Source: Domibacillus indicus (GTDB taxonomy: Bacteria; Bacillota; Bacilli; Bacillales; Domibacillaceae). From it: a stretch of DNA of 64,000 nucleotides. Made by a program: the position numbers and the translations under genes. Below, piece after piece: positions 3,472-57,951 of the stretch (its first letter is position 1; each line of letters begins with the position of its first letter). Location of the stretch: assembly GCF_000970685.1 (NCBI RefSeq), contig NZ_LAJB01000003.1:186001-250000 (forward strand), written 5' to 3'. The notes below the pieces were generated by a model. The model was given only the letters and a program-made list of their open reading frames with translations, was not told the DNA's origin and made no database searches.

Positions 3472-5085
3472 ATGGCTCGAAATGATTACCGGGCAATGCT
3501 TTCTAAACGAATGGAAAAAGAATTTTCCGGCTGGTTTGAACAAGAGCATATTCAAGAGAAGGATTTGTACCGCTTTCTTCATACTATGAAAGGGACTGCC
3601 GGTACAATCGGACTAGATGAGATGTCTTCCTTTTGCTCTTCACAGCTGGAAAATCTATCCGACACTAGCGAAACGTTAATTCCGGTTCGTTCGTTAAAAA
3701 ATTTCATTTCGCTGATGAGAAGCTTTTTTCACAGTAATGAAGAAAATGCAGTTTTAGAAGAAGAAATCGAAGAAGTCCCTGTTTCTATTGAGGAAAACGG
3801 CTCTTTTGTTTTAATTATTGATGAAGATGCCGAGTTTGCCTCCTATATAAAAGAGACGCTCGAGGAAAACGGTGTACAGGCTGTTATCGCATTAACCGGC
3901 AAACGGGGTGTAGAGCTGTTTTATACGCTTCAGCCTCATATGGTTATTATGGATGCGCAGCTGCCGGATATGAATGGCTTTGATATTTTAACGCAGATTA
4001 ACGATATTGCCAGAAGCCGACATGTGCCGATTACCCTGGTCAGCGTAGATGGACGGGCTGAAAATTTCAGCAAAGCCTATGAAATGGGCGCGATGGACTT
4101 TATTCCAAAGCCAATTAACATAAACGTTTTCATTCCTTACGTCTCTAATAGGTTAAAATACAGGTCTGCCATCTGGCAGTCCGCTTTAACCGATGAACTG
4201 ACAGGTGCCGGAAACCGCCGGCAATTTACACAGACTCTTTCTCAAATGTCAGCTCTGGCTGAACGTAAGCGGCATACATATTCGCTCGTTATGCTGGATT
4301 TGGATCATTTCAAAAAAATAAACGATCAGTATGGACACCCTGCCGGCGATGAAGTTTTGCGAAGCTTCAGCTCGCTCGTTTTAAGAATGAAGCGGGAAAC
4401 AGATTATTTCTTCCGATACGGCGGTGAAGAATTCGCTTTGCTTTTGGCGGATACCATTCCAGCAGAAGCGATTGTTTTAATTGAACGGATTCGCTCAAAA
4501 TTTGCGGAAACCGCTTTTACTATTCCGCCTTTTGATCCGTTTCACGTAACATTTTCAGCGGGCGTGTCCGAGTATCGAATTGATGAAGCGACCGTCTTAA
4601 ACGAAGCGGATCAAGCACTTTATAAAGCCAAGCGAAACGGGCGGAACCAGTCTGTTGTTTACGCTCTTGACAGCGGCGATGTAAAACGTCATTTAAACAT
4701 TATGATTGTCGATGATGACCTGCTTGTGCGAAAAATGCTGTCGAAACAATTCGCCGGATGGAAACCAAATGAAATTGACGTTCTCATTCATGAATATCCC
4801 GATGGTATCTCTTTTTTGGAATCAGATTGGTACAAGCCGGATGAAAATTATATGATTCTTTTAGATGGCATCATGCCGAAAATGGACGGGCTTGAAGTGC
4901 TGACCAATGTCCGGAAACGGTTTCCGGATGACAATATTGTCATTTCCATGCTGACAGCACGTACAAATGAAGCAGATATTGTCCTGGCTTTAAAAAGCGG
5001 AGCAGATGATTACATTGTGAAGCCATTTCATCCTCAGGAAGTGGTGGCCCGGGTACAGCGCCTGACAAAGAGGATGTTTAAATGA
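3472..5085 (+). CDS. Hpt-REC-GGDEF-REC protein (phosphorelay-linked diguanylate cyclase)
   Basis: This 537-residue soluble protein has four signalling modules. An Hpt domain (about 1-85) carries the phosphoacceptor His37 in HTMKGTAGTIGL. A first receiver (about 112-225) has Asp161 in MDAQLPDMNG. A GGDEF domain (about 240-395) has an intact GGEEF active site at 317-321 and an RxxD product-inhibition site (RETD, 308-311). A second receiver (about 408-535) has Asp465 in LLDGIMPKMDG and Lys517 in IVKPF. It should therefore make cyclic-di-GMP under phosphorelay control. The ATG follows a GAGGGG ribosome site. Its TGA overlaps the next ATG (ATGA), so the genes are translationally coupled. The Hpt domain is the natural partner of the hybrid kinase encoded at 11071-13926. 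Confidence 0.9.
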   Translation: MARNDYRAMLSKRMEKEFSGWFEQEHIQEKDLYRFLHTMKGTAGTIGLDEMSSFCSSQLENLSDTSETLIPVRSLKNFISLMRSFFHSNEENAVLEEEIEEVPVSIEENGSFVLIIDEDAEFASYIKETLEENGVQAVIALTGKRGVELFYTLQPHMVIMDAQLPDMNGFDILTQINDIARSRHVPITLVSVDGRAENFSKAYEMGAMDFIPKPININVFIPYVSNRLKYRSAIWQSALTDELTGAGNRRQFTQTLSQMSALAERKRHTYSLVMLDLDHFKKINDQYGHPAGDEVLRSFSSLVLRMKRETDYFFRYGGEEFALLLADTIPAEAIVLIERIRSKFAETAFTIPPFDPFHVTFSAGVSEYRIDEATVLNEADQALYKAKRNGRNQSVVYALDSGDVKRHLNIMIVDDDLLVRKMLSKQFAGWKPNEIDVLIHEYPDGISFLESDWYKPDENYMILLDGIMPKMDGLEVLTNVRKRFPDDNIVISMLTARTNEADIVLALKSGADDYIVKPFHPQEVVARVQRLTKRMFK

Positions 5086-6131
5086 CCCTTTCCTTTTTCC
5101 TGCTGCTGACTGCTTCTCTCTTTCTTTTGCAAATTGTGCTTCTCTGTTATCTGGTGATCCGCAAAAAAAGGCGGCAGCGCTACGAGGAAGAAGTAGAAAG
5201 CCAGTATAACCATTTAGTGGAGCCGTTCAGTTCTTATATGATGGAGCCATCTGATGTGCGCTTTTTTTATGCTATTCGTTCAATCAAGCACCAGGAAGTG
5301 GTACTGGAGCGGTTATTAAATGGCTATGTAGCCTTTACAAAAGAAGCGCACTCTTCACCTTTAGTGAAACAGCTGTCTGAAAGATTTTTAACAGAGCCGT
5401 ACCGCCAAAGATTGAACCGGCGTAACTGGGCAAAGCGGATAAACACCCTCCATTATATTGAAGACTTCCATATGGTTTCCCTGTCTCCCGTTTTGCTGGA
5501 GCAGCTTGCCATCTCGAATAAACTGGATGCTGAAACCCGGCAGCTTATCCGGACTCTTGCTTCATTGGATGAAACAAAAGTGCTCACCGAATTGAGCCGA
5601 TTTTCAAATGCGCCTCTCCGGCTGTATGCGGATGTTTTCAGCCGTTTAAAAAAAGAGACTGCAGTGAAAGAAATCCAATCCGCGCTCGAGAGTACGGATT
5701 TATCCCTGAAACATGCAGCGCTGATTTTTGTCGGACAGTCCGGGTCCCTTGCTTTTCTTCCCGCTGTTGAAAAAGAGCTGGCAGTCCCGCATGCTGAAAC
5801 AAGAATTCAAGCGCTTAAAGCTATTTTCCGGCTTGAATATATGTCTGATCCCGACTTGCTGGCCCCCTTTTTCAAATCAGAAATCTGGGCGGAGCGAATG
5901 TTTGCTGCGCGTATAGCCGGCATTTTACAGCTTTCCAGATATAAAGAAACACTGGGCATACTGTTGGGAGACTCTGTTTGGTGGGTTCGCTATTCTGCGG
6001 CTGAAGCCTTTACGCACTTTTCAGATGGAGATTTACTCCTTGCCCACTTAGCCGAAAATCACCCTGACCGCTATGGACGGGATATGGCTGCACAGTGGCA
6101 GATCTACCAGCCTGGAGGTGCCAGACAATGA
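5082..6131 (+). CDS. Membrane-anchored HEAT-repeat protein of the glycosyltransferase operon
   Basis: This 349-residue protein has one N-terminal transmembrane helix (about residues 3-26, followed by RKKRRQR, which predicts a cytoplasmic body). An alpha-helical remainder follows. From about residue 195 the helices fall into HEAT-like repeats, for example SLKHAALIFVGQ and VWWVRYSAAEAF. It has no catalytic motif that I can see. ATGA overlaps join it to both the upstream diguanylate cyclase and the downstream glycosyltransferase, which implies a stoichiometric partner. I infer a scaffold or a regulator of the synthase, since the glycosyltransferase itself has no PilZ domain. The function is not established. 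Confidence 0.8.
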   Translation: MTLSFFLLLTASLFLLQIVLLCYLVIRKKRRQRYEEEVESQYNHLVEPFSSYMMEPSDVRFFYAIRSIKHQEVVLERLLNGYVAFTKEAHSSPLVKQLSERFLTEPYRQRLNRRNWAKRINTLHYIEDFHMVSLSPVLLEQLAISNKLDAETRQLIRTLASLDETKVLTELSRFSNAPLRLYADVFSRLKKETAVKEIQSALESTDLSLKHAALIFVGQSGSLAFLPAVEKELAVPHAETRIQALKAIFRLEYMSDPDLLAPFFKSEIWAERMFAARIAGILQLSRYKETLGILLGDSVWWVRYSAAEAFTHFSDGDLLLAHLAENHPDRYGRDMAAQWQIYQPGGARQ

Positions 6132-7525
6132 ACATCGTTTTCCTTATTCTTTCTTACGTAACAATTATTTATATGTTGATTTCCAGCTTGAGCTATGTGG
6201 TCCTTTTTTTGCTTGCTTTCCGCAAAGTACACCGGGAAAGCGAGCTGGACCGCCGCGAGCTGACAGAAGATATTGCCGGGAGCGAGCGGACATACCCTGT
6301 TTCCATTCTGGTTCCGGCTTATAATGAAGAAGTAGGGGTTGTCAGTACAGTCCGGTCTCTTCTTGCTCTGGAATACCCTGAAAAAGAGATTATTGTGATT
6401 GATGACGGCTCTAAAGACCAGACCTCGGCCCGAATGATTGAAGAATTTCAAATGACTGAAATTCCGTTCGCCGTTCGGGCTTATCTGGAGACAGCCGAAG
6501 TAAAAGCCATTTACCAGTCTGCTATTTTCCCGTATATCCGCCTTATTAAGAAAGCAAATGGCGGAAAAGCGGATGCATTGAACGCGGGGATTAATTTATC
6601 CTCTTATCCTTATTTCTGTGCTATTGACGGGGATTCAATTTTAGAGAATGATGCACTTTTAAAAACAATGCGGCCGATTATTGAGTCAGACGGCCAGATT
6701 ATTGTAACAGGAGGCTCGGTCCGCATCGCAAACGGATCGACCATTTCAAGAAGCAAGGTAGAAGCGATTGACCTGCCGCGGCATCCAGTTGTCCTTATGC
6801 AGATTATCGAGTACTTCCGCGCTTTTTTGATCGGCCGTCTGGCTTTAAGCCGAATGAATATTTTATTGATTGTTTCCGGTGCTTTCGGTGTTTTTCATAA
6901 AGAACGGGTGATCCGCGCCGGCGGCTACAACAAAAAAACGGTCGGCGAGGACATGGAGCTTGTGGTGCGTCTGCACAGGCTGCTGAAGGAAGAAAAATCA
7001 AAGCAGCGAATTGAATACGTTCCGGACCCTGTTTGCTGGACAGAAGCACCCGAATCACTTGAGGTTTTGCGCTCACAGCGAATCCGCTGGCAGCGAGGAT
7101 TGTTCGAGACGCTCTGGACGCACAAAAAAATGATGCTCAATCCGTCATACGGCTCGGTAGGACTGGTGTCTATGCCTTACTTTTTATTTGTGGAACTGCT
7201 CGGGGCCATTTTTGAATTCTGCGGTTATTTTCTTATTTTCGGCGGCTTTTTCTTTTCATTGATTGATCCGAAAATTGCCGGCATTTTGTTTTTGGTTACG
7301 ATTTTTTACGGATCGCTTATTTCTGCCCTGGCCGTTCTTTTGGAAGAATTAACGCTTCATAAATATCCAAAGGTTTCTCATTTAATCCGCTTGTACGGCT
7401 GGGCACTGACAGAAGCTTTTTGGTATCGTCCGCTTATGGTTATTTGGCGGATTCAAGGGATTTTTGCGGCTTTCCGAAAAAAACAGCATTGGGGCGATAT
7501 GAAGCGGAAAGGAATCTCGACTTAA
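6128..7525 (+). CDS. Processive family-2 glycosyltransferase (exopolysaccharide synthase-like)
   Basis: The ATG at 6128 is chosen because GGAGGT lies 8 bases before it and it overlaps the previous stop codon; this gives 465 residues. An N-terminal membrane segment (about 4-32) is followed by a GT-A domain with Asp92-Asp93 (DDGS), Asp167/Asp169 (AIDGDS), the acceptor-site GED (273-275) and QRIRW (317-321). This D,D,D,QxxRW set marks processive synthases of the cellulose, poly-N-acetylglucosamine and hyaluronan type. Further membrane helices cluster at about 345-405. There is no PilZ domain. The product polymer is unknown. Together with the diguanylate cyclase and the glycosidase-like protein it suggests a secreted polysaccharide. 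Confidence 0.88.
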   Translation: MNIVFLILSYVTIIYMLISSLSYVVLFLLAFRKVHRESELDRRELTEDIAGSERTYPVSILVPAYNEEVGVVSTVRSLLALEYPEKEIIVIDDGSKDQTSARMIEEFQMTEIPFAVRAYLETAEVKAIYQSAIFPYIRLIKKANGGKADALNAGINLSSYPYFCAIDGDSILENDALLKTMRPIIESDGQIIVTGGSVRIANGSTISRSKVEAIDLPRHPVVLMQIIEYFRAFLIGRLALSRMNILLIVSGAFGVFHKERVIRAGGYNKKTVGEDMELVVRLHRLLKEEKSKQRIEYVPDPVCWTEAPESLEVLRSQRIRWQRGLFETLWTHKKMMLNPSYGSVGLVSMPYFLFVELLGAIFEFCGYFLIFGGFFFSLIDPKIAGILFLVTIFYGSLISALAVLLEELTLHKYPKVSHLIRLYGWALTEAFWYRPLMVIWRIQGIFAAFRKKQHWGDMKRKGIST

Positions 7526-7546
7526 ACAACATGGAGGTAGGCTGAA

Positions 7547-7897
7547 TTGAAAAAGATTTTAGTAGCGGATGATGAAGACATTCTGCGTATGTTAATTGTG
7601 GATACACTTGAAGATGATTTTGATATTACTGAAGCGGAAGACGGACAAGAAGCGCTTAATTGTGCCCGGACGCAGACATATGACTTGATCATCCTTGATT
7701 ATATGATGCCCCATTTAACAGGAATGGAAGTATTGGAAACAATCCGCAAAGACGGAAATTCAACTCCCGTGCTAATGCTTACAGCGAAAGCCCAGGAAGC
7801 AGACCGGGAGCTGGCCATGTCGCACGGAGCCGATTACTTTATGGCAAAACCGTTTAGCCCGATGGAATTACTGTCTCTCGTAGAAACGATTCTTTAA
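7547..7897 (+). CDS. Stand-alone CheY-like response regulator
   Basis: This 116-residue protein consists only of a receiver domain: acidic pocket Asp8-Asp9, phosphoacceptor Asp51 (LDYMMP), Thr in LTAKA and Lys in AKPFSP. The start is a TTG with GGAGGT 8 bases upstream. It has no output domain, so it acts by protein contact or as a phosphate shuttle or sink. As the last gene of the diguanylate cyclase and glycosyltransferase operon, it probably exchanges phosphate with the Hpt domain of the first gene and may control the synthase complex. Confidence 0.88.
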   Translation: MKKILVADDEDILRMLIVDTLEDDFDITEAEDGQEALNCARTQTYDLIILDYMMPHLTGMEVLETIRKDGNSTPVLMLTAKAQEADRELAMSHGADYFMAKPFSPMELLSLVETIL

Positions 7898-7902
7898 TGA
7901 GA

Positions 7903-7940
7903 AAGCGGGCAGCTCCCCTGAAGAGCCGCCCGCTTGTTTT
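7903..7940. terminator. Bidirectional terminator between convergent operons
   Basis: AAGCGGGC-AGCTC pairs with GAGC-CGCCCGCTT, followed by TTTTTATT on the plus side and an A/T-rich run on the minus side. It separates the converging receiver gene and the glycosidase-like gene. Confidence 0.8.
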
Positions 7941-10900
7941 TATTGGTCTTCTTGTTTAAACCGGTCTTGAAGCAGATAATAGGATTTTTTCAATCTTTCT
8001 CTTGAAGAAACGTCCCCGTTCCACGATTCCCATTTGTACATGTTCATTTTCGGAACAGCATTGCCTGATGAAGCGGGCAGTGTTGACTCTTCTCCAAAAG
8101 AGGCGCCAATCCCAATGCCTTTTATTGTTTCTTCCGCCTCGATTCCTTCCTTGAAAATATCTCCCGCTGCTTTCAGGCTGCTCGGGTCCTTCACATTTAA
8201 TAACAGCCATGGAATACGGATTTCGATATTCCCTGTTTCGTTATCCACATAGTAATCGGATAAAGAATCATACTCAGACGATTTTGGATTGCCATTGCCA
8301 AACCGCATGACTCCCGTTTCATAATAATCAAACGGAAGCACTTCATCTGTATCCGGACGGGTGATTTCTTTATTCAGGGCCAGGCGGACCGGGTTAAAGT
8401 CGCTGCTGTTGTTCGCCGGCTTTTCAGGCACCGGCTTCAGCATCGGAACGTCAAATCCATACTGGTACAAGAAAGTATCATAATAAGCATTTACCTGGAG
8501 GGTGCCTTTGTTTTTTCCATCGAATGAAAGAACAAAGTCAATATCATTCGAAGCAAATGACAGGCCATCCTCTTTCTCGCTTCCAATGGCTGGATGCACA
8601 TCGAAATAAAACTCCGGCATCCGGCCATTGGACATTTTCGAGCGGATATACAGATAGCGCTCATCATGTGTGACATACAGGCTGTCGTTTCCCTTGTAAA
8701 ACGGCTGAATGTCCTCCCAGTCTTTTATATCCCCGTCTGTTTTAATACGGAGGCGGTCAAAACTTAAGAGCCCGAACTGCTGCTCATTTGTCTGGGCGTT
8801 GGACCAGTACGGACGCCGTTCTGGATCATCAAGGTCCATCGTATTCCAGGTCCGCTTAAACCACTCATCCTGCCAGGTAAAAACAAGGCCGCCCATCATC
8901 CCTTCAGCCAGAATATCATCATACATATGAATAAGCCCTTCTCCCTGCTGCTGCTCGCTTATAAAGCCCTGGTTCAGCCCAAAGGTATTGCGGTGCGTCA
9001 TGCCGCGTGAAGCAGGAAGGCCAAACTCTGCAATCAAAACCGGCATGTCATGTGCCTCGCGGAGATCATGCAGGTACCCGGCATAGCTGTTGTTTTCACC
9101 TCGGAAATCCTTATACGTTACATACTTTTCTTCTAAATTCAAAAAGTCAGGGTAATACGGATACACATGGTACGAAGCAAACAGCGGGGTTTCCCTTTTC
9201 GGCTTGATCGTATTCGGATTAACCGATACCAGGTCTTCCTGCTCCTGCGGTTCAGCCGGATGCTCCAGCAGGTCTGTTGTTACCCAGTTTGTAAAGCTCA
9301 TCGGCCGTGTCCACTTATAGGTGTCAGCTTCATATTTCATCATTGTATCCATTTGCTCGGCCAGCCAGATTTCCATCGGCTCCGCTTTTTCTGTGCGGAC
9401 AAACTCGCCGTCATATTGGGCAAGGCCGGCGTATTTCGTTTTCATATTGTCGACCATATACGGATACCACTCAATCCCGAGCATCCAGCCAATGACATAC
9501 GGTGATATATCCGCCCGGTAAACACCTGACGCATGGCCTGTCCGTTTTTGGATATCGGCATTGCCATGAATCACATCGGCGAGCCGTTTCATTTCCGCTT
9601 GAAATTCTTTCGTGATTTCCGGTGTAAAAGCATCAAGTGTCTTTTCTAACGGCTCCTCGTCAATCCACACACCATGAAAAACATAAATCGGCGAATCCGC
9701 ATGCTCTTCATTATACCGTTTCAGCGCATTGTAAAAGCCAGGCGGGTGAAGTGTGTAAACACGAATCGTATTGGCATTCATTTCGCCAATTTGAGTCAGC
9801 CAGTCATAGTATTCCGATTCGGAAATGGCTGCTTCACCAGGAAATGCCCCCGGTTTCCCCATGCCGATATTAACACCTCTTACCGTCATCGTTTTCCATT
9901 TGCCATCTTCATATACGTCAAAGCGGTCTCCATTTAAGCGGGCGGTATAGGAAAGACCGTTTTTTTCCGCGGCAGGTACAGAAACTGCTTCTTCCTCGTC
10001 CGCTTTTTTCTCCATCGATAAAATGCCTTTCATCAGCGGCACGTACGTTTTCCAGAAAAACGCCTGCTCCGGATAAAGAGCGGAAGGCGTAATAAAGGCC
10101 CGCATCGAGGCGAAGCCGGCATATTTATAGATAGAGGATACTTCCGCTGTATCAGCAAAATCTCCGGCAAAATAAAAAAGGTCCGACTGTTCATACGAAT
10201 AATGGGTCACTGCCGGAAAAGAAAGCGGAATGCCTTCTTTCTCTAATAGCTCTTTTCCTTTTTTCGATAAATCCCATTGATAATGAGCCCAAATATCCTG
10301 TTTATTTTCCGGCACGGTTATGTCAAACCAGTAGGTGTATGGAACACCTTTTTCCAGGCCGGTTATCTGCTTCCCTTCCTCTGTAAACTCCATTGTCAGC
10401 TGTGCTTTGTTTGCATATCCTTCTTCTTCCGAAAGCACAATGACTTTTTCTTTTTCTTCATTCACAAGCACAAAGCCGGGCCCCTCAAATGCCCACTTCT
10501 TTCCTTCTGCTTCATATAATGAAAAAATGTCCGCTGTCAGCTCTTCATTTTCTTTACTTAACTCTCCAAAAGCGCGCCCTGTCCAGCCAGTCGGATTCGT
10601 ATGCAAAAAAGAAGCCGCATCATTTTTCACTTCCGCTTTTGTTGGAGAAGCAAATGTGTTGAATTCCATAATCAATGTCGTTGGATGGTCGGCTGTCTGC
10701 TGCTTTATCGCTTCCCATTCATCCAATTGAAGGCCGCCGTATACAAGGTTGTTTTCTTCGTCATATACCCCGTATGTGTCAGCCGCATAAATCAGGTCTG
10801 CTCCTTCAAGACTTTCAGGCAGCGCTCTTTCTTTTTCCTTCTTTTCAGGAAAATAACCGTAATAGTCATTTTCACCGCCGAAGGAAGCAAAGCGCAAATG

Positions 10901-11071
10901 CTCCAGCACCCAGGAGAGAGCACGGTGCTCTCTCTTATTGTCTGTTGGTACGGTTTTATCCAAAATAACCACTTTGTCCGCCCTTGTGCCGCCAAGCTCC
11001 CACATAATGCGGGGCAGCAAAAGCAGTAAAGCAATTCCCAGGAGCACAAACCACTTTTTCTTTGCTTTCAT
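7940..11071 (-). CDS. Membrane-anchored glycoside-hydrolase-like protein with C-terminal CBM9-like domain
   Basis: This 1043-residue protein has an N-terminal membrane anchor (about 7-25), then an extracytoplasmic region of about 350 residues that I do not recognise. From about 380 to 770 a clan-A glycosidase-like barrel is visible: TIRVYTLHPPGF at 435-446, Glu534 in GWMLGIEWYP at the acid/base position, and Glu682 in IAEFGLP at the nucleophile position. From about 775 to 990 a family-9-like carbohydrate-binding or DOMON-type beta domain follows (DGDIKDWEDI, then DERYLYIRSKM). It probably trims, transfers or binds the polymer made by the convergent glycosyltransferase operon. Its start codon overlaps the stop of the hybrid kinase gene by one base. 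The exact family and activity are uncertain. Confidence 0.78.
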   Translation of the reverse strand: MKAKKKWFVLLGIALLLLLPRIMWELGGTRADKVVILDKTVPTDNKREHRALSWVLEHLRFASFGGENDYYGYFPEKKEKERALPESLEGADLIYAADTYGVYDEENNLVYGGLQLDEWEAIKQQTADHPTTLIMEFNTFASPTKAEVKNDAASFLHTNPTGWTGRAFGELSKENEELTADIFSLYEAEGKKWAFEGPGFVLVNEEKEKVIVLSEEEGYANKAQLTMEFTEEGKQITGLEKGVPYTYWFDITVPENKQDIWAHYQWDLSKKGKELLEKEGIPLSFPAVTHYSYEQSDLFYFAGDFADTAEVSSIYKYAGFASMRAFITPSALYPEQAFFWKTYVPLMKGILSMEKKADEEEAVSVPAAEKNGLSYTARLNGDRFDVYEDGKWKTMTVRGVNIGMGKPGAFPGEAAISESEYYDWLTQIGEMNANTIRVYTLHPPGFYNALKRYNEEHADSPIYVFHGVWIDEEPLEKTLDAFTPEITKEFQAEMKRLADVIHGNADIQKRTGHASGVYRADISPYVIGWMLGIEWYPYMVDNMKTKYAGLAQYDGEFVRTEKAEPMEIWLAEQMDTMMKYEADTYKWTRPMSFTNWVTTDLLEHPAEPQEQEDLVSVNPNTIKPKRETPLFASYHVYPYYPDFLNLEEKYVTYKDFRGENNSYAGYLHDLREAHDMPVLIAEFGLPASRGMTHRNTFGLNQGFISEQQQGEGLIHMYDDILAEGMMGGLVFTWQDEWFKRTWNTMDLDDPERRPYWSNAQTNEQQFGLLSFDRLRIKTDGDIKDWEDIQPFYKGNDSLYVTHDERYLYIRSKMSNGRMPEFYFDVHPAIGSEKEDGLSFASNDIDFVLSFDGKNKGTLQVNAYYDTFLYQYGFDVPMLKPVPEKPANNSSDFNPVRLALNKEITRPDTDEVLPFDYYETGVMRFGNGNPKSSEYDSLSDYYVDNETGNIEIRIPWLLLNVKDPSSLKAAGDIFKEGIEAEETIKGIGIGASFGEESTLPASSGNAVPKMNMYKWESWNGDVSSRERLKKSYYLLQDRFKQEDQ

Positions 11072-13926
11072 TATGAATCAGAACCTTTCTCTGGATAGAA
11101 AATAACTCCCTGCTGCTTTGGCTCAGTTAAAAATCCAAGAACTGCCTGCGATAATTGGTTAGGCGGATACGGTTTCGTTAAGTAATGATCGATCTGGGTC
11201 AGCTTTCCTGAATCTTCATTTTGATCGAGGGCTGAAGAAATAATGATCGGAATATCGCGCGTGCTTGTTTCTTTTTTTAGCAGTTCCACCAGATCCCAGC
11301 CATTCAGGTCATCTCCAAGCATAATATCAATGACCATTCCAACGAGCGGGGTACGCTTCGCTTCTTCAAAGGCTTCGGATGGATCGAGATGATAAATAAC
11401 CGTAAAACCATTCATTTTTAATTCTTCAGATAACAAAAGAGCAAGGCTCATATCATCTTCCACAATCATCACCGAAGGGCTGTTTTCTGTTCCTTCAGGA
11501 CGAATGAGCCGGCTTGGGCCGGAAGAAAGAAGCGGCAGAGAAACGCATACTGTCGTTCCTTTACCCTCTTCTGATTCAATGGTAATCGTTCCATTGTGCT
11601 TTTCGATAATTTCCCGGCAAATTGCCAGCCCCAGTCCCGTTCCGCCAATTTTCCTCCGAGCGCTGTTATCAATCCGCTGGAACTTGCTGAACAGCTTCGG
11701 CACAGCTTCGGCTGGAATGCCGATCCCTTCATCTTTCACAGAAACAAGGAGCTGGTTTTCTTTATTGGAAAGAGTCAGCGTAACATGGCCGCCGTCCGGT
11801 GAAAACTTAATCGCGTTGCCAAGAATATTCGTTAACACCTGGGCAAGGCGCTCCTTATCTCCTTTAACGCGGACGTCAGCCGCTTCATCCACGACAACAA
11901 GGGAATGGCTGTTTTCCGACCGGAAGCGGGTAACTGCTTCAACAGCCAGCTCATTCATCTGAAATTCTTCCATTTGATACACCTGGCTGCCCGATTCCAT
12001 TCGCTGCAAATCTAAAAAGTCATTAATTAAGTTTGTCAGCCTGTTCGCTTCTTTGTAGATTGTTTCTAAGTATTTTTTTTGCTTTTCTGGTTTCAGCTGC
12101 TTGTGAAGCAGCAGCTCCGTAAAACCAAGGACGCTTGAAAGCGGCGTACGGAGCTCATGGCTGACCGTGCTGACCAGCTCTGTTTTCATCTGGTCAATCT
12201 CATATTCTTTCGTAATATCCCGATGAACAAAGATCGTACCTGTTTTTTCTCCCTCTATGAAAACAGGAGCGCTATACACATCAATTACGCGTTCAGACGG
12301 TCCTAAAATTTTGTAACGGTATTCCTGGATGCCATCCTCTTCCTGCGAAAGGCAGCTTTCCAAAAAGCTTTTCATTTTTTGAGGCTCGTCGGTTTGCTCA
12401 GCCAGGTGATCGATCCATTGCTTCTTTTCAACTATTTCATCAAGGCACACTGCATCCCAGCCAACAATAAAACAGAATGCTTCATTGCGCTGCAGCATAC
12501 GTCCATCCACGCCGACAAATTGAATGCCTTCATTAATGTTATTGACGATCCGCTCATTAAGCACCCGCTCTTTCACGTTGCGGTCATACAGCTGAATACG
12601 CTCAATAGCCAGAGAAATACGCTTTAACAAGCCATACAGGTCTTTCTGTTCCTGTGGAGAAAAAGCATGGCCAATTCTCGCTCCGCCGAATAAAGCTGTC
12701 ATCTGCCCGGCTGCGCTGCTTACTCCGGCAAAATATTCATAAACATAAACCGTTTCTGAAGCAAGCCCTTTTTCCTGCACAGCCTCTCTTTTTAACGTAA
12801 AAAAAGAGTCCTCCTTCAGCCGCTGGTCAATATAATCAATCCGGCGTGCTGAAAACTCGTCAAACATCGATTTTGTTACACCCTTGAGCTTATGTTCTCC
12901 GCTGTCGCGAATCCAAAACAAGCCCAGATCTAACCCGTATACTTCGTCAAGATAATCAAGTACACTATCGGCAAGTTCCTGTTTGTTAAGAGAAAAAGAC
13001 AGAACATGATTTAAATCATTATAGCGCTGCAGCCGTTCTTTCGTTTGGTTCGTCTCGCGGAGTGATTCCTCGATTTTCTCCTGGTGTTCCTGAAGCTCTT
13101 CCTGCTGCATAACCAATTCTTCATTCTGGGCTGTGAGTTCTTCTTCTTTTTCCTGTATGGTCCGGATCATGGAGCCAAATGAAGAAAATAGCACACCGAT
13201 TTCATCATTTTGCTTTATCGGCAGTAATGAAAAGCTTTTGCCGGACGCGAAATCATCAGCTGCTTTTCTCATATTTTCAAGCGGCCTTACGATTTCCTTC
13301 ATCATCCGCCAGATCAAATAAGAAATAAAAACGAATAACAAAAAAATAAATATGATCATCACAAGCGTAAATTGATACGCCTGCTGAAGCATTTCTCTTG
13401 ACAGCACTTCCAGCCGATCATCAATATCTGTTTTATACTGCTGTGCATATTCCATAAATTGATTTACAGAATCGGTCAGGCCGCTGCTTGACAATACTCT
13501 CAGCGCTTCATAATCATTGTTTTCCACCATTTCAATTGTGGCAGGCAGCGTCTCTCTTTCATATGCAGCCATGAAATCTGCAAGTTCTTCTGTCAGCTGC
13601 TGCTCTTGTGAATTTAACTGAATATTTTTCAATTCACTCAGTGATCCGTTTACCTGCTCAATATCTTCATAAACGCGGGCAAGCTCTTTCTCATTTTGAA
13701 AGGCGACATACCCTCTTGCCCGGAAAAACATATCATTCAGTGAATCCCGCAGTGTTTCCAATTTCGCTTGCTTTTCAAACAGTGCTTCCCTCTTGAACCT
13801 CAGCTCTTCCTGCGAATCTTTCATATAAATAAAGGCCCCCGCCCCTGCTGCTGTCAAAAGAAATAAAATCGATAATGACAAAAGCAAATACCGGCGCCGA
13901 ATGCCAGATGTTATATCTATGCCCAT
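11071..13926 (-). CDS. Hybrid sensor histidine kinase (4-helix sensor, HAMP, GAF, PAS, HisKA, HATPase, REC)
   Basis: The ATG at 13926 follows GGGAGGAAAC and gives 951 residues; a longer frame upstream lacks a ribosome site. A first membrane helix (about 13-35) and a helical extracellular domain lead to a second helix at about 186-206. A HAMP domain (about 207-260) and a glutamine-rich coiled coil (260-300) follow. Then come a GAF-like domain (about 305-445), a PAS-like domain (about 455-575), HisKA with His590 (SHELRTP), an ATPase domain with DEGIGIP and GGTGLGL, and a C-terminal receiver with Asp867 (VIDIML). A hybrid kinase needs an Hpt protein, and one is encoded in the convergent operon. 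It is co-transcribed with the glycosidase-like gene. Confidence 0.9.
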   Translation of the reverse strand: MGIDITSGIRRRYLLLSLSILFLLTAAGAGAFIYMKDSQEELRFKREALFEKQAKLETLRDSLNDMFFRARGYVAFQNEKELARVYEDIEQVNGSLSELKNIQLNSQEQQLTEELADFMAAYERETLPATIEMVENNDYEALRVLSSSGLTDSVNQFMEYAQQYKTDIDDRLEVLSREMLQQAYQFTLVMIIFIFLLFVFISYLIWRMMKEIVRPLENMRKAADDFASGKSFSLLPIKQNDEIGVLFSSFGSMIRTIQEKEEELTAQNEELVMQQEELQEHQEKIEESLRETNQTKERLQRYNDLNHVLSFSLNKQELADSVLDYLDEVYGLDLGLFWIRDSGEHKLKGVTKSMFDEFSARRIDYIDQRLKEDSFFTLKREAVQEKGLASETVYVYEYFAGVSSAAGQMTALFGGARIGHAFSPQEQKDLYGLLKRISLAIERIQLYDRNVKERVLNERIVNNINEGIQFVGVDGRMLQRNEAFCFIVGWDAVCLDEIVEKKQWIDHLAEQTDEPQKMKSFLESCLSQEEDGIQEYRYKILGPSERVIDVYSAPVFIEGEKTGTIFVHRDITKEYEIDQMKTELVSTVSHELRTPLSSVLGFTELLLHKQLKPEKQKKYLETIYKEANRLTNLINDFLDLQRMESGSQVYQMEEFQMNELAVEAVTRFRSENSHSLVVVDEAADVRVKGDKERLAQVLTNILGNAIKFSPDGGHVTLTLSNKENQLLVSVKDEGIGIPAEAVPKLFSKFQRIDNSARRKIGGTGLGLAICREIIEKHNGTITIESEEGKGTTVCVSLPLLSSGPSRLIRPEGTENSPSVMIVEDDMSLALLLSEELKMNGFTVIYHLDPSEAFEEAKRTPLVGMVIDIMLGDDLNGWDLVELLKKETSTRDIPIIISSALDQNEDSGKLTQIDHYLTKPYPPNQLSQAVLGFLTEPKQQGVIFYPEKGSDS

Positions 13927-25802: not shown

Positions 25803-25914
25803 CCCACAGGATGTGGGTCACAAAGGCGTTGCGGCAGGACGCCGCGTTTTTAGCCTTTGTTCTTTGCTGCAGGATGTGGGTCACAAAGGCGTTGCGGCAA
25901 GAGCCGCGTCTTTA
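25803..25914. repeat. Two tandem copies of a short hairpin repeat (family 2)
   Basis: Two units begin at 25807 and 25870 with CAGGATGTGGGTCACAAAGG and continue GCGTTGCGGCA, ending GCCGCG. Each unit contains two small inverted repeats: CCCACA-GGA-TGTGGG (complete in the first unit) and GCGGC-AGGAC-GCCGC. Related units in inverted orientation are found at 57788-57951. The units do not code for protein. Confidence 0.85.
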
Positions 25915-38525: not shown

Positions 38526-38542
38526 CTGCTCCATAGCAAGTA

Positions 38543-38901
38543 TGGAGACGGCGGGAGTCGAACCCGCGTCCAAAGATAACGGCACCTGAGCATCTACGGG
38601 TGTAGCTATGCTATTTCGGTCTCACTGACCCGCCTGCCGCATAGCAGGCCGTCGAATCAGCCAGCCTGATTAATCTCTTCCTTCATCCCCAGGCGTAGGA
38701 ATCCGGCGTAGTCCGCTCGAAGTGAGCCCCTTACCCGACTGCACGGACAACAGCGGGAGGAGCACAGGCTAACCTAAATTAGGCAGCTTGTAGTTGAGTT
38801 TGTTGTTTGCCAGTTATTATAGGCAAGTGCGTTTTGACAGAGCCGGCCCTCTGACCCGCAGCCCAGGCTCGAACTATCCCTGTCGAATCCGTAACGTCCC
38901 C
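38543..38901 (-). ncRNA. ssrA: Transfer-messenger RNA (tmRNA)
   Basis: The 359-base RNA starts GGGGACGTTACGGATTCGAC and ends with the tRNA-like TTCGACTCCCGCCGTCTCCA. The acceptor stem GGGGACG/CGTCTCC and the TTCGA loop are intact, and the CCA end is not encoded. The tag reading frame (38779-38811, minus) starts at the resume codon GGC and encodes GKQQTQLQAA followed by TAA. The last three residues are QAA instead of the usual LAA. It lies directly downstream of smpB, its protein partner, on the same strand, as in B. subtilis. Confidence 0.96.
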
Positions 38902-57787: not shown

Positions 57788-57951
57788 ACGCTGCATCCTC
57801 TGGCAGCACTTTTGTGACCCGGGAAATCATAAAAGAACAAAGGCTAAGAATGCGACGTCCTGTGGCAACGCCTTCGTGACCCTCCCGAGGAACAAAAGCT
57901 AGAACGCCACGTCCTGTGGCAACGCCTTCGTGACCCACATCCTGTGGGCCT
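57788..57951. repeat. Inverted copies of the short hairpin repeat (family 2)
   Basis: Three units lie between trxB and yvcI: a degenerate one at about 57790-57820 (GCATCCTCTGGCAGCACTTT) and two good ones at about 57852-57881 and 57905-57949 that share ACGTCCTGTGGCAACGCCTT. The last unit continues CACATCCTGTGGGCC. They are the reverse complement of the units at 25803-25914. No gene is present in the rest of the 57639-58078 gap. Confidence 0.82.

What the first reader, a model, noticed from the sequence alone, without database searches (positions are those of the whole stretch)
3472..13926. Candidate phosphorelay plus cyclic-di-GMP controlled exopolysaccharide module
Two converging operons encode all parts of a relay and a polymer synthase. 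One encodes a hybrid kinase (His590, Asp867) and a surface glycosidase-like protein. The other encodes an Hpt-REC-GGDEF-REC protein (His37, Asp161, intact GGEEF, Asp465), a HEAT-repeat membrane protein, a processive glycosyltransferase and a lone CheY-like receiver. The Hpt domain fused to a diguanylate cyclase supplies the shuttle that a hybrid kinase requires, so signal, second messenger and synthase appear to be wired together. I know no described Bacillus system with this exact set; it differs from ydaJKLMN and epsA-O.
Basis: partly seen in the sequence, partly recalled or inferred. Interest (0 to 1): 0.78.

Follow-up and report, generated by a model that had tools for sequence, protein, structure and literature searches.

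The report
Phosphorelay-gated c-di-GMP polysaccharide synthase module
A bacterium that is probably a Domibacillus carries a six-gene unit, found in whole or part in many relatives of Bacillus, that appears to pass an outside signal along a phosphate relay into an enzyme making cyclic-di-GMP and so to switch on a membrane polysaccharide synthase; the unit is real, but how it works is inferred from sequence only.

Summary
In detail: all six genes, coordinates and named residues are present. (1) Kinase, lone receiver and Hpt-REC-GGDEF-REC cyclase travel together: of 40 fetched loci of the kinase family, 40 have the receiver beside the kinase, 37 the cyclase; Hpt His and C-terminal receiver Asp are kept in 47 of 47 kinase-linked cyclases. 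(2) In 14 of the 40, all six genes lie on one strand in one order. (3) In 39 of 80 glycosidase-anchored loci kinase, receiver and Hpt are missing; in 34 of these (one GT2 clade) the cyclase is replaced by a degenerate GGDEF-REC that lost its active site but keeps the c-di-GMP inhibitory-site residues (31 of 34), its receiver Asp changed to Asn (31). This suggests c-di-GMP read-out at the synthase, as by YdaK, PssE, PelD. (4) The glycosidase-like protein has a GH-A-type barrel. Against: 18 of 40 kinase loci show no HEAT plus GT2 in the fetched stretch, 10 of them in genomes without the glycosidase gene; five kinase-less regulators keep the receiver Asp and lack the GGDEF; phosphotransfer, cyclase activity, polymer untested. 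New variant of a known kind.

The parts
3472..5085 (+). Hpt-REC-GGDEF-REC diguanylate cyclase, 537 aa; Hpt His37, REC1 Asp161, inhibitory-site positions Arg308/Asp311/Arg339, GGEEF 317-321, REC2 Asp465
5082..6131 (+). HEAT-repeat protein, 349 aa; one hydrophobic segment (8-26), the rest a helical solenoid in the model (pLDDT 94.6)
6128..7525 (+). processive-type GT2 glycosyltransferase, 465 aa from ATG 6128 (the listed ORF opens at GTG 6095); DGS, DGDS, GEDM, QxxRW motifs and several hydrophobic segments
7547..7897 (+). single-domain CheY-like receiver, 116 aa, Asp51, TTG start behind ggaggt
7903..7935 (.). imperfect inverted repeat between the converging operons, possibly a shared terminator
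7940..11071 (-). 1043-aa membrane-anchored glycosidase-like protein: N domain about 30-370, GH-A-type barrel about 385-785 with invariant Glu534 and Glu682, C-terminal beta domain about 786-1040
11071..13926 (-). hybrid histidine kinase, 951 aa: two hydrophobic segments, CHASE3-like, HAMP, PAS-like, HisKA (His590), HATPase, REC (Asp867); 1-bp overlap with the glycosidase start

Best explanation
The module is a phosphorelay-gated, c-di-GMP-controlled polysaccharide synthase. Inferred flow: the membrane hybrid kinase senses an unknown signal, phosphorylates itself on His590, passes the phosphate to its own receiver (Asp867), then to the Hpt histidine (His37) of the cyclase and on to the cyclase's C-terminal receiver (Asp465); the lone receiver is a second acceptor (a sink, or a Spo0F-like bypass where the kinase lacks a receiver). 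Phosphorylation sets the GGEEF cyclase. Cyclase and HEAT protein sit with the GT2 synthase at the membrane, and c-di-GMP bound at a GGDEF inhibitory site in that complex switches the synthase on. The anchored GH-A-type protein trims, branches or releases the polymer outside. Shown by sequence and models: gene content, domains, conserved residues, gene linkage, the folds of the GH-like and HEAT proteins, the degenerate GGDEF with inhibitory-site residues in the short form. Inferred: every phosphotransfer step, cyclase activity, the read-out, the complex, the polymer, the signal.
For: Triad linkage: receiver in 40 of 40, Hpt-cyclase in 37 of 40 fetched kinase loci. Kinase-linked cyclases: Hpt His 49/49, REC2 Asp 49/49, GG[DE]EF 47/49, REC1 Asp 44/49, RxxD 43/49; without two duplicates 47/47, 47/47, 46/47, 42/47, 41/47. 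One-strand six-gene order in 14 of 40 loci and in 2 of the 80 named loci. In the 80 glycosidase-anchored loci the same 13 have kinase and lone receiver; 11 of these 13 have the cyclase against 3 of 67. GT2-linked regulators keep the Hpt His in 32 of 32 kinase loci against 1 of 42 others. Own genome: one Hpt besides the CheA-like one. Short form, 34 loci of one GT2 clade: N-terminal part is a GGDEF relative (17 rows: hhalign 98%, E 2.7e-13; PDB profile search ranks cyclases first, DosC E 5e-9); inhibitory-site R, D, R in 31, RNR in 2, one cut; phospho-Asp is Asn in 31, Ser in 2, Asp in 1; active-site motif lost. Fold: GH157 first, then GH2- and GH5-type enzymes. Precedents, passages read: PssE (PMC4125290), YdaK (PMC5422440), PelD (PMC7112168), the CdgK-CdgS relay to a cyclase (PMC9927289).
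Against: No HEAT plus GT2 in the fetched stretch in 18 of 40 kinase loci (some stretches are short or end in a GT2 piece), 10 of the 18 in genomes without the glycosidase gene; 33 kinase genomes lack the glycosidase gene and 32 the reverse. Three kinase loci of one genus have no cyclase; three kinases lack the receiver though the Hpt is kept. L230 has an Hpt-cyclase in a genome without a kinase hit and L083 keeps the Hpt His without a kinase in its stretch. One genome (L064 = L191) has AGDQF for GGDEF. Five of 39 kinase-less regulators keep the receiver Asp and have no GGDEF counterpart, and 9 of 42 regulators in kinase-less loci keep that Asp, so Asp loss does not simply follow kinase loss. 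The GT2 tree needs 7 kinase changes and gives 3 independent pairs on supported branches, 5 on all: no significance possible. Inhibitory-site residues in an active cyclase usually mean feedback inhibition. The GT2 has no Pfam c-di-GMP-binding domain, and two PilZ proteins elsewhere in the genome could be the readers.
Confidence: 0.58

Rival explanations
1. The triad is a general signalling cassette that feeds the cellular c-di-GMP pool (other matrix genes, flagella); its place beside the synthase is loose, and the synthase answers to another regulator.
For: No HEAT plus GT2 in the fetched stretch in 18 of 40 kinase loci, 10 of these in genomes without the glycosidase gene; 33 of 141 kinase genomes lack it; the cyclase architecture in 5 of 398 genomes of the phylum, two of them outside the order with the full triad, one distant genome with the cyclase and no kinase in the stretch; 14 GGDEF and 10 EAL matches in the own genome.
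Against: 108 of 397 genomes have both genes; 22 of 40 loci have HEAT and GT2 in the stretch, 14 with all six on one strand in one order; the short form keeps a GGDEF-REC relative in the same slot next to HEAT.
Confidence: 0.2
2. Phosphorylation, not c-di-GMP, is the switch: the phosphorylated C-terminal or lone receiver docks on the HEAT scaffold and opens the synthase; the GGDEF domain is secondary.
For: REC2 Asp is kept in 49 of 49 kinase-linked cyclases; five kinase-less regulators keep that Asp and have no GGDEF counterpart; HEAT solenoids commonly dock proteins (fold match; role recalled); one genome has AGDQF.
Against: GG[DE]EF intact in 46 of 47 distinct kinase-linked cyclases; in the 34-locus short-form clade the receiver lost its Asp in 33 while inhibitory-site residues stay in 31.
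Confidence: 0.14
3. The GT2 makes a cell-envelope or spore polymer, or a glycolipid head group, rather than a released exopolysaccharide; the GH-like protein remodels the envelope.
For: GT2 is far below the PgaC/IcaA cut-off (134.7 vs 422.3 bits) and only distantly like hyaluronan synthase; the GH-like protein has no Pfam or NCBIfam name, no PDB sequence match, and one N-terminal hydrophobic segment that would anchor it.
Against: QxxRW-type motifs and several hydrophobic segments are those of processive synthases (recalled rule); glycosidase plus c-di-GMP receptor plus GT is the pattern of pss, yda and pel loci (PMC4125290, PMC13274460, PMC7112168, passages).
Confidence: 0.08

Closest known systems
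B. subtilis ydaJKLMN (YdaK receptor) and Listeria pssA-E (PssE receptor)
   Same: c-di-GMP-controlled polysaccharide synthase locus with a glycosidase and a degenerate-GGDEF inhibitory-site receptor (PMC5422440, PMC13274460, PMC4125290, passages read); the short form here has the same logic
   Different: the regulator here has no hydrophobic segment in the window and is fused to a receiver; there is a HEAT protein; the window form has an active-looking cyclase with Hpt and two receivers, plus hybrid kinase and lone receiver
B. cereus pelDEADAFG
   Same: [quoted passage not shown] PMC7112168, passages)
   Different: regulating cyclase CdgF and phosphodiesterase CdgE are separate genes; no phosphorelay is described in the passages read; part-by-part comparison was not made
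Anabaena CdgK-CdgS
   Same: HK to REC to Hpt to REC-GGDEF relay raising c-di-GMP, with in vitro transfer within the kinase shown (PMC9927289, passages)
   Different: there the Hpt is on the kinase; here it is on the cyclase, with a second receiver after GGDEF; CdgS controls cell size, not a synthase
PleD, WspR, DgcR and other REC-GGDEF cyclases
   Same: receiver-gated cyclases; PDB profile hits
   Different: no Hpt and no C-terminal receiver (recalled architecture)
E. coli NfrB-DgcJ
   Same: local pairing of one cyclase with one polysaccharide synthase (PMC8669469, abstract read)
   Different: c-di-GMP is read by an MshEN domain of the glycosyltransferase itself; no phosphorelay in the abstract

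Membership tests
Hpt domain (PF01627) | match to the family and HxxKG-type phospho-His | tested here: met
   24.2 bits vs cut-off 24.6, 27.2 and over it in the genome scan; 30 of 36 A6 members at E<=0.01; His in 49 of 49 kinase-linked cyclases
Diguanylate cyclase | GG[DE]EF active site | tested here: met
   GGEEF 317-321; 46 of 47 distinct kinase-linked relatives
Diguanylate cyclase | synthesis of c-di-GMP | not testable with these tools
   needs the purified protein
Multistep phosphorelay | HK-His, REC-Asp, Hpt-His, REC-Asp all present and linked | tested here: met
   three relatives lack the kinase receiver
Multistep phosphorelay | phosphotransfer between them | not testable with these tools
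   needs purified proteins
ydaJKLMN / pss operons | membrane-bound degenerate-GGDEF receptor (membrane part of PssE recalled) | tested here: not met
   window protein has intact GGEEF and no hydrophobic segment; short-form relatives are degenerate and REC-fused; their hydrophobicity was not computed
ydaJKLMN / pss operons | c-di-GMP inhibitory-site residues in the locus regulator | tested here: met
   R308, D311, R339 in the window; 31 of 34 short-form clade members, 31 of all 39
PNAG synthase PgaC/IcaA | score above family cut-off | tested here: not met
   134.7 vs 422.3 bits
pel locus | Pel parts PelD, PelE, PelA, PelF, PelG | not tested
   no search for the Pel parts was made
Glycoside hydrolase clan GH-A | (beta/alpha)8 barrel with Glu at the ends of strands 4 and 7 (rule recalled) | tested here: met
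   model pLDDT 85.8, Glu534 just after strand 526-532 and Glu682 in strand 678-683, both invariant in 39 rows; best PDB fold hits GH157, GH2- and GH5-type (a deacetylase ranks 9th)
Glycoside hydrolase clan GH-A | catalytic activity on a polysaccharide | not testable with these tools
   no assay; no sequence match in the PDB at E<=1

The most novel reading that the evidence does not exclude
One structural slot in a polysaccharide-synthase complex is filled either by a c-di-GMP maker or by a c-di-GMP reader.
Probability: 0.3. Interest if true: 0.8.

Novelty: new variant of a known kind. Interest (0 to 1): 0.6.

Why it matters
If true, it gives Bacillales a widespread polysaccharide system (547 places encoding a relative of the glycosidase-like protein were confirmed in one capped scan) with a defined signal chain from a membrane kinase to a synthase, and a natural comparison (long against short form) for how an enzyme that makes a second messenger turns into one that only senses it. 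Each step can be tested with purified proteins.

Tried and rejected
Considered and set aside: that the set is a chance cluster (linkage); that it is a ydaJKLMN, pss or pel locus (regulator differs; not every part was tested); that the GT2 is PgaC/IcaA (fails the cut-off). Led nowhere: the glycosidase-like protein against PDB sequences (0 hits at E<=1); the viral fold library (four hits at E<=0.001, low TM-scores); an independent-pair test on the GT2 tree (too few pairs). Ten paper searches listed no paper whose title or abstract start describes this set; several lists were capped (20 of 268, 20 of 49, 12 of 15, 15 of 95, 15 of 21). 'Hpt-REC-GGDEF', 'REC-GGDEF-REC', 'Hpt-GGDEF' and 'GGDEF-REC' gave no paper. 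The library lacks most subscription journals and holds no preprints. Seven papers were opened: six by passages, one by abstract.

Rows dropped or chosen: 40 of the 141 kinase genomes were fetched, picked by hand to spread over genera, not at random. L186 and L191 are taken as duplicates of L063 and L064 because of equal contig lengths; they are and left out. L103 is left out of alignment A3 because its matched stretch holds a stop. A4 holds 17 of the 39 kinase-less regulators, A6 36 of the 52 cyclases, A7 14 GT2 and A8 28 HEAT proteins, chosen for spread. Two 605-608-aa kinases (L105, L118) in the 57 rows I take for non-members. The ORF of L090 is cut at its start. The Fisher values ignore relatedness.

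Full report
Where it is. The window is contig C23:186001-250000 of a 3.6 Mb genome. By GT2 its nearest named rows are Domibacillus tundrae, iocasae and enclensis, so it is most likely a Domibacillus; the genome itself is unnamed.

Observation. All six genes and the named residues are at the stated places. Cyclase and HEAT genes overlap by 4 bp; GT2 most likely starts at 6128 with a 4-bp overlap and a ggaggt; the lone receiver starts at a TTG behind ggaggt; kinase and glycosidase genes overlap by 1 bp. Each group is packed as an operon would be; no transcript data were seen. Between the two groups lies an imperfect inverted repeat.

The cyclase. It is Hpt-REC-GGDEF-REC. The Hpt match of the window protein is borderline, but 30 of the 36 cyclases of A6 hit the family at E<=0.01. 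Of 52 aligned cyclases (window plus 51 found in 120 loci), 49 lie in loci with the kinase: Hpt His 49, REC2 Asp 49, GG[DE]EF 47, REC1 Asp 44, RxxD 43. Without the two duplicates: 47, 47, 46, 42 and 41 of 47. The other three have no kinase in the stretch: Hpt His in 1, REC1 Asp in 0, GG[DE]EF in 1, REC2 Asp in 3. That REC2 rather than REC1 is the essential acceptor is my inference.

The kinase. His590 is kept in 57 of 57 aligned rows; Asp867 in 52, with 5 gaps: two short rows that I take for non-members, and L204, L211 and L216, true relatives without a receiver. There the lone receiver could stand in, like Spo0F (recalled analogy). The lone receiver's Asp is kept in 50 of 50 rows. The own genome has two Hpt domains, this one and one in a 686-aa frame that I take for CheA, and two frames with both HisKA and receiver hits; kinases of other HisKA types were not sought.

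Linkage. The kinase sensor region was found in 141 of 397 genomes of the order. I fetched 40 of these 141, picked by hand to spread over genera. The lone receiver lies beside the kinase in 40 of 40; the Hpt-cyclase is in 37 of 40 (in L215 split over two frames; absent in L184, L185, L187, one genus); HEAT and GT2 are in 22 of 40; all six on one strand in the order cyclase-HEAT-GT2-glycosidase-receiver-kinase in 14 of 40. Of the 18 without HEAT plus GT2, some stretches are short (L183, L184) and L217 ends in a GT2 piece; 10 of the 18 lie in genomes without the glycosidase gene. In the window and the five named Domibacillus long-form loci the receiver instead follows GT2, with the glycosidase between it and the kinase. 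Genome-level counts: both 108, kinase only 33, glycosidase only 32, neither 224 of 397, at fixed E-value limits and without correction for phylogeny.

Named relatives. Of these 80 loci: 39 regulator-HEAT-GT2-glycosidase without kinase, 11 with all six, 3 with cyclase but no kinase, 12 with HEAT and GT2 only, 12 with the glycosidase alone, 3 other partial sets. Some loci end at contig edges, and a partner can lie further off: the contig of L062, counted as glycosidase alone, has by length and position the same module about 40 kb on (L206), so these are minimum counts.

Kinase-less regulators. Of the 39, 34 belong to one GT2 clade of 35 rows (SH-aLRT 99). In these 34 the N-terminal part is a GGDEF relative: profile comparison of 17 with the long-form GGDEF gives 98% and E 2.7e-13, and the PDB profile search ranks cyclases first (DosC E 5e-9), although Pfam itself sees GGDEF over cut-off in only 2 of 10 regulators scanned, two of these ten from outside the clade. 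The GGDEF motif is absent in all 39. The inhibitory-site positions (R, D, R; PleD numbering R359, D362, R390 recalled) read RDR in 31 of 34, RNR in 2, one is cut; the receiver Asp is Asn in 31, Ser in 2, Asp in 1. In A4 the three positions are among only seven invariant columns; simple counting gives about 5e-5, which ignores relatedness. This looks like a c-di-GMP receptor with an idle receiver, as PssE, YdaK and PelD are receptors (passages). The five regulators outside the clade (L092, L101, L109, L111, L131) keep the receiver Asp and have no counterpart of the GGDEF: they fit phospho-control better and speak against a single rule. Five of the 39 loci have a separate GGDEF gene close by, two of them with an intact motif.

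Tree. On the GT2 tree of 88 rows (quick method) the kinase needs 7 changes and the Hpt 4. Regulators in kinase loci keep the Hpt His in 32 of 32 and GG[DE]EF in 31 of 32; in kinase-less loci 1 of 42 and 1 of 42, but the REC2 Asp in 9 of 42. Independent pairs: 3 on supported branches, 5 on all; in those sampled the Hpt never went the other way, but significance cannot be reached.

Glycosidase-like protein. The model from 39 sequences has mean pLDDT 85.8. Foldseek's best PDB hits are GH157 laminarinase chains, then mostly GH2- and GH5-type enzymes, with a deacetylase (Agd3) ninth; whole-length TM-scores are low. Glu534 and Glu682 sit where clan GH-A enzymes have acid/base and nucleophile (rule recalled) and are invariant in 39 sequences. 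One hydrophobic segment (8-26) would anchor it. The substrate is unknown.

HEAT protein. pLDDT 94.6: a long N-terminal helix and a helical solenoid; PDB fold hits are HEAT/alpha-Rep proteins, armadillo designs and PP2A scaffolds. A docking platform between regulator and GT2 is inference.

GT2. DGS, DGDS, GEDM and QRxRW are invariant in 14 sequences. It is below the PgaC/IcaA cut-off; the longest solved sequence match is hyaluronan synthase. The sugar is unknown.

Wider spread. In 398 genomes of the phylum the cyclase profile matched at E<=1e-110 in 5: the own genome, G005, two of another family of the class with kinase and receiver beside it, and one of another class with no kinase in the stretch. 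G005 has the cyclase but no kinase hit. The own genome also has 14 GGDEF, 10 EAL and 2 PilZ matches, so other makers and readers exist.

Mechanism. Best reading: kinase to its receiver to Hpt to REC2, cyclase gated, c-di-GMP read at a GGDEF inhibitory site in the synthase complex. Shown: parts, linkage, conserved residues, folds. Not shown: any transfer, synthesis, binding, complex or polymer. Main weakness: the triad is separable from the synthase.

Novelty. Ten searches of the held library listed no paper that by title or abstract start describes the set or an Hpt-REC-GGDEF-REC protein (several lists capped; most subscription papers and all preprints missing). c-di-GMP-read synthases are known; the Hpt built into the cyclase, the trailing receiver and the maker/reader swap in one gene slot are the features I did not find described. 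New variant of a known kind.

Noticed in passing
L094 (titled Arthrobacter beigongshangensis REN13): The contig carries a short-form module whose GT2 groups inside Bacillales, so the assembly may be mislabelled or contaminated.
   Followed up: no
L059/L095 and L060/L084: Domibacillus aminovorans and D. mangrovi carry both the long and the short form in one genome.
   Followed up: partly
L231 (G002:C1:2720000-2739900): The N domain of the glycosidase-like protein stands alone (357 aa) after GT2, while several genomes have proteins that match only from about residue 369 on: the N domain may work separately.
   Followed up: no
L188 (G349): Cyclase-HEAT-GT2 occurs twice in tandem; the first cyclase copy has lost the REC1 Asp and the RxxD.
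   Followed up: no
L184, L185, L187: One genus keeps kinase and lone receiver without the cyclase, beside two conserved proteins of about 615 and 380 aa.
   Followed up: no
L204, L211, L216: Kinases of the family that end before the receiver domain although the Hpt-cyclase is kept.
   Followed up: partly
L233 (G020:C19:1-19900): A shorter kinase frame (538 aa) of the family lies between the lone receiver and the Hpt-cyclase, in a different order from the other loci.
   Followed up: no
   Followed up: partly
window 25803-25869 and 57883-57948; 38540-38901: Two Bacillaceae-1 RNAs and a tmRNA gene.
   Followed up: no
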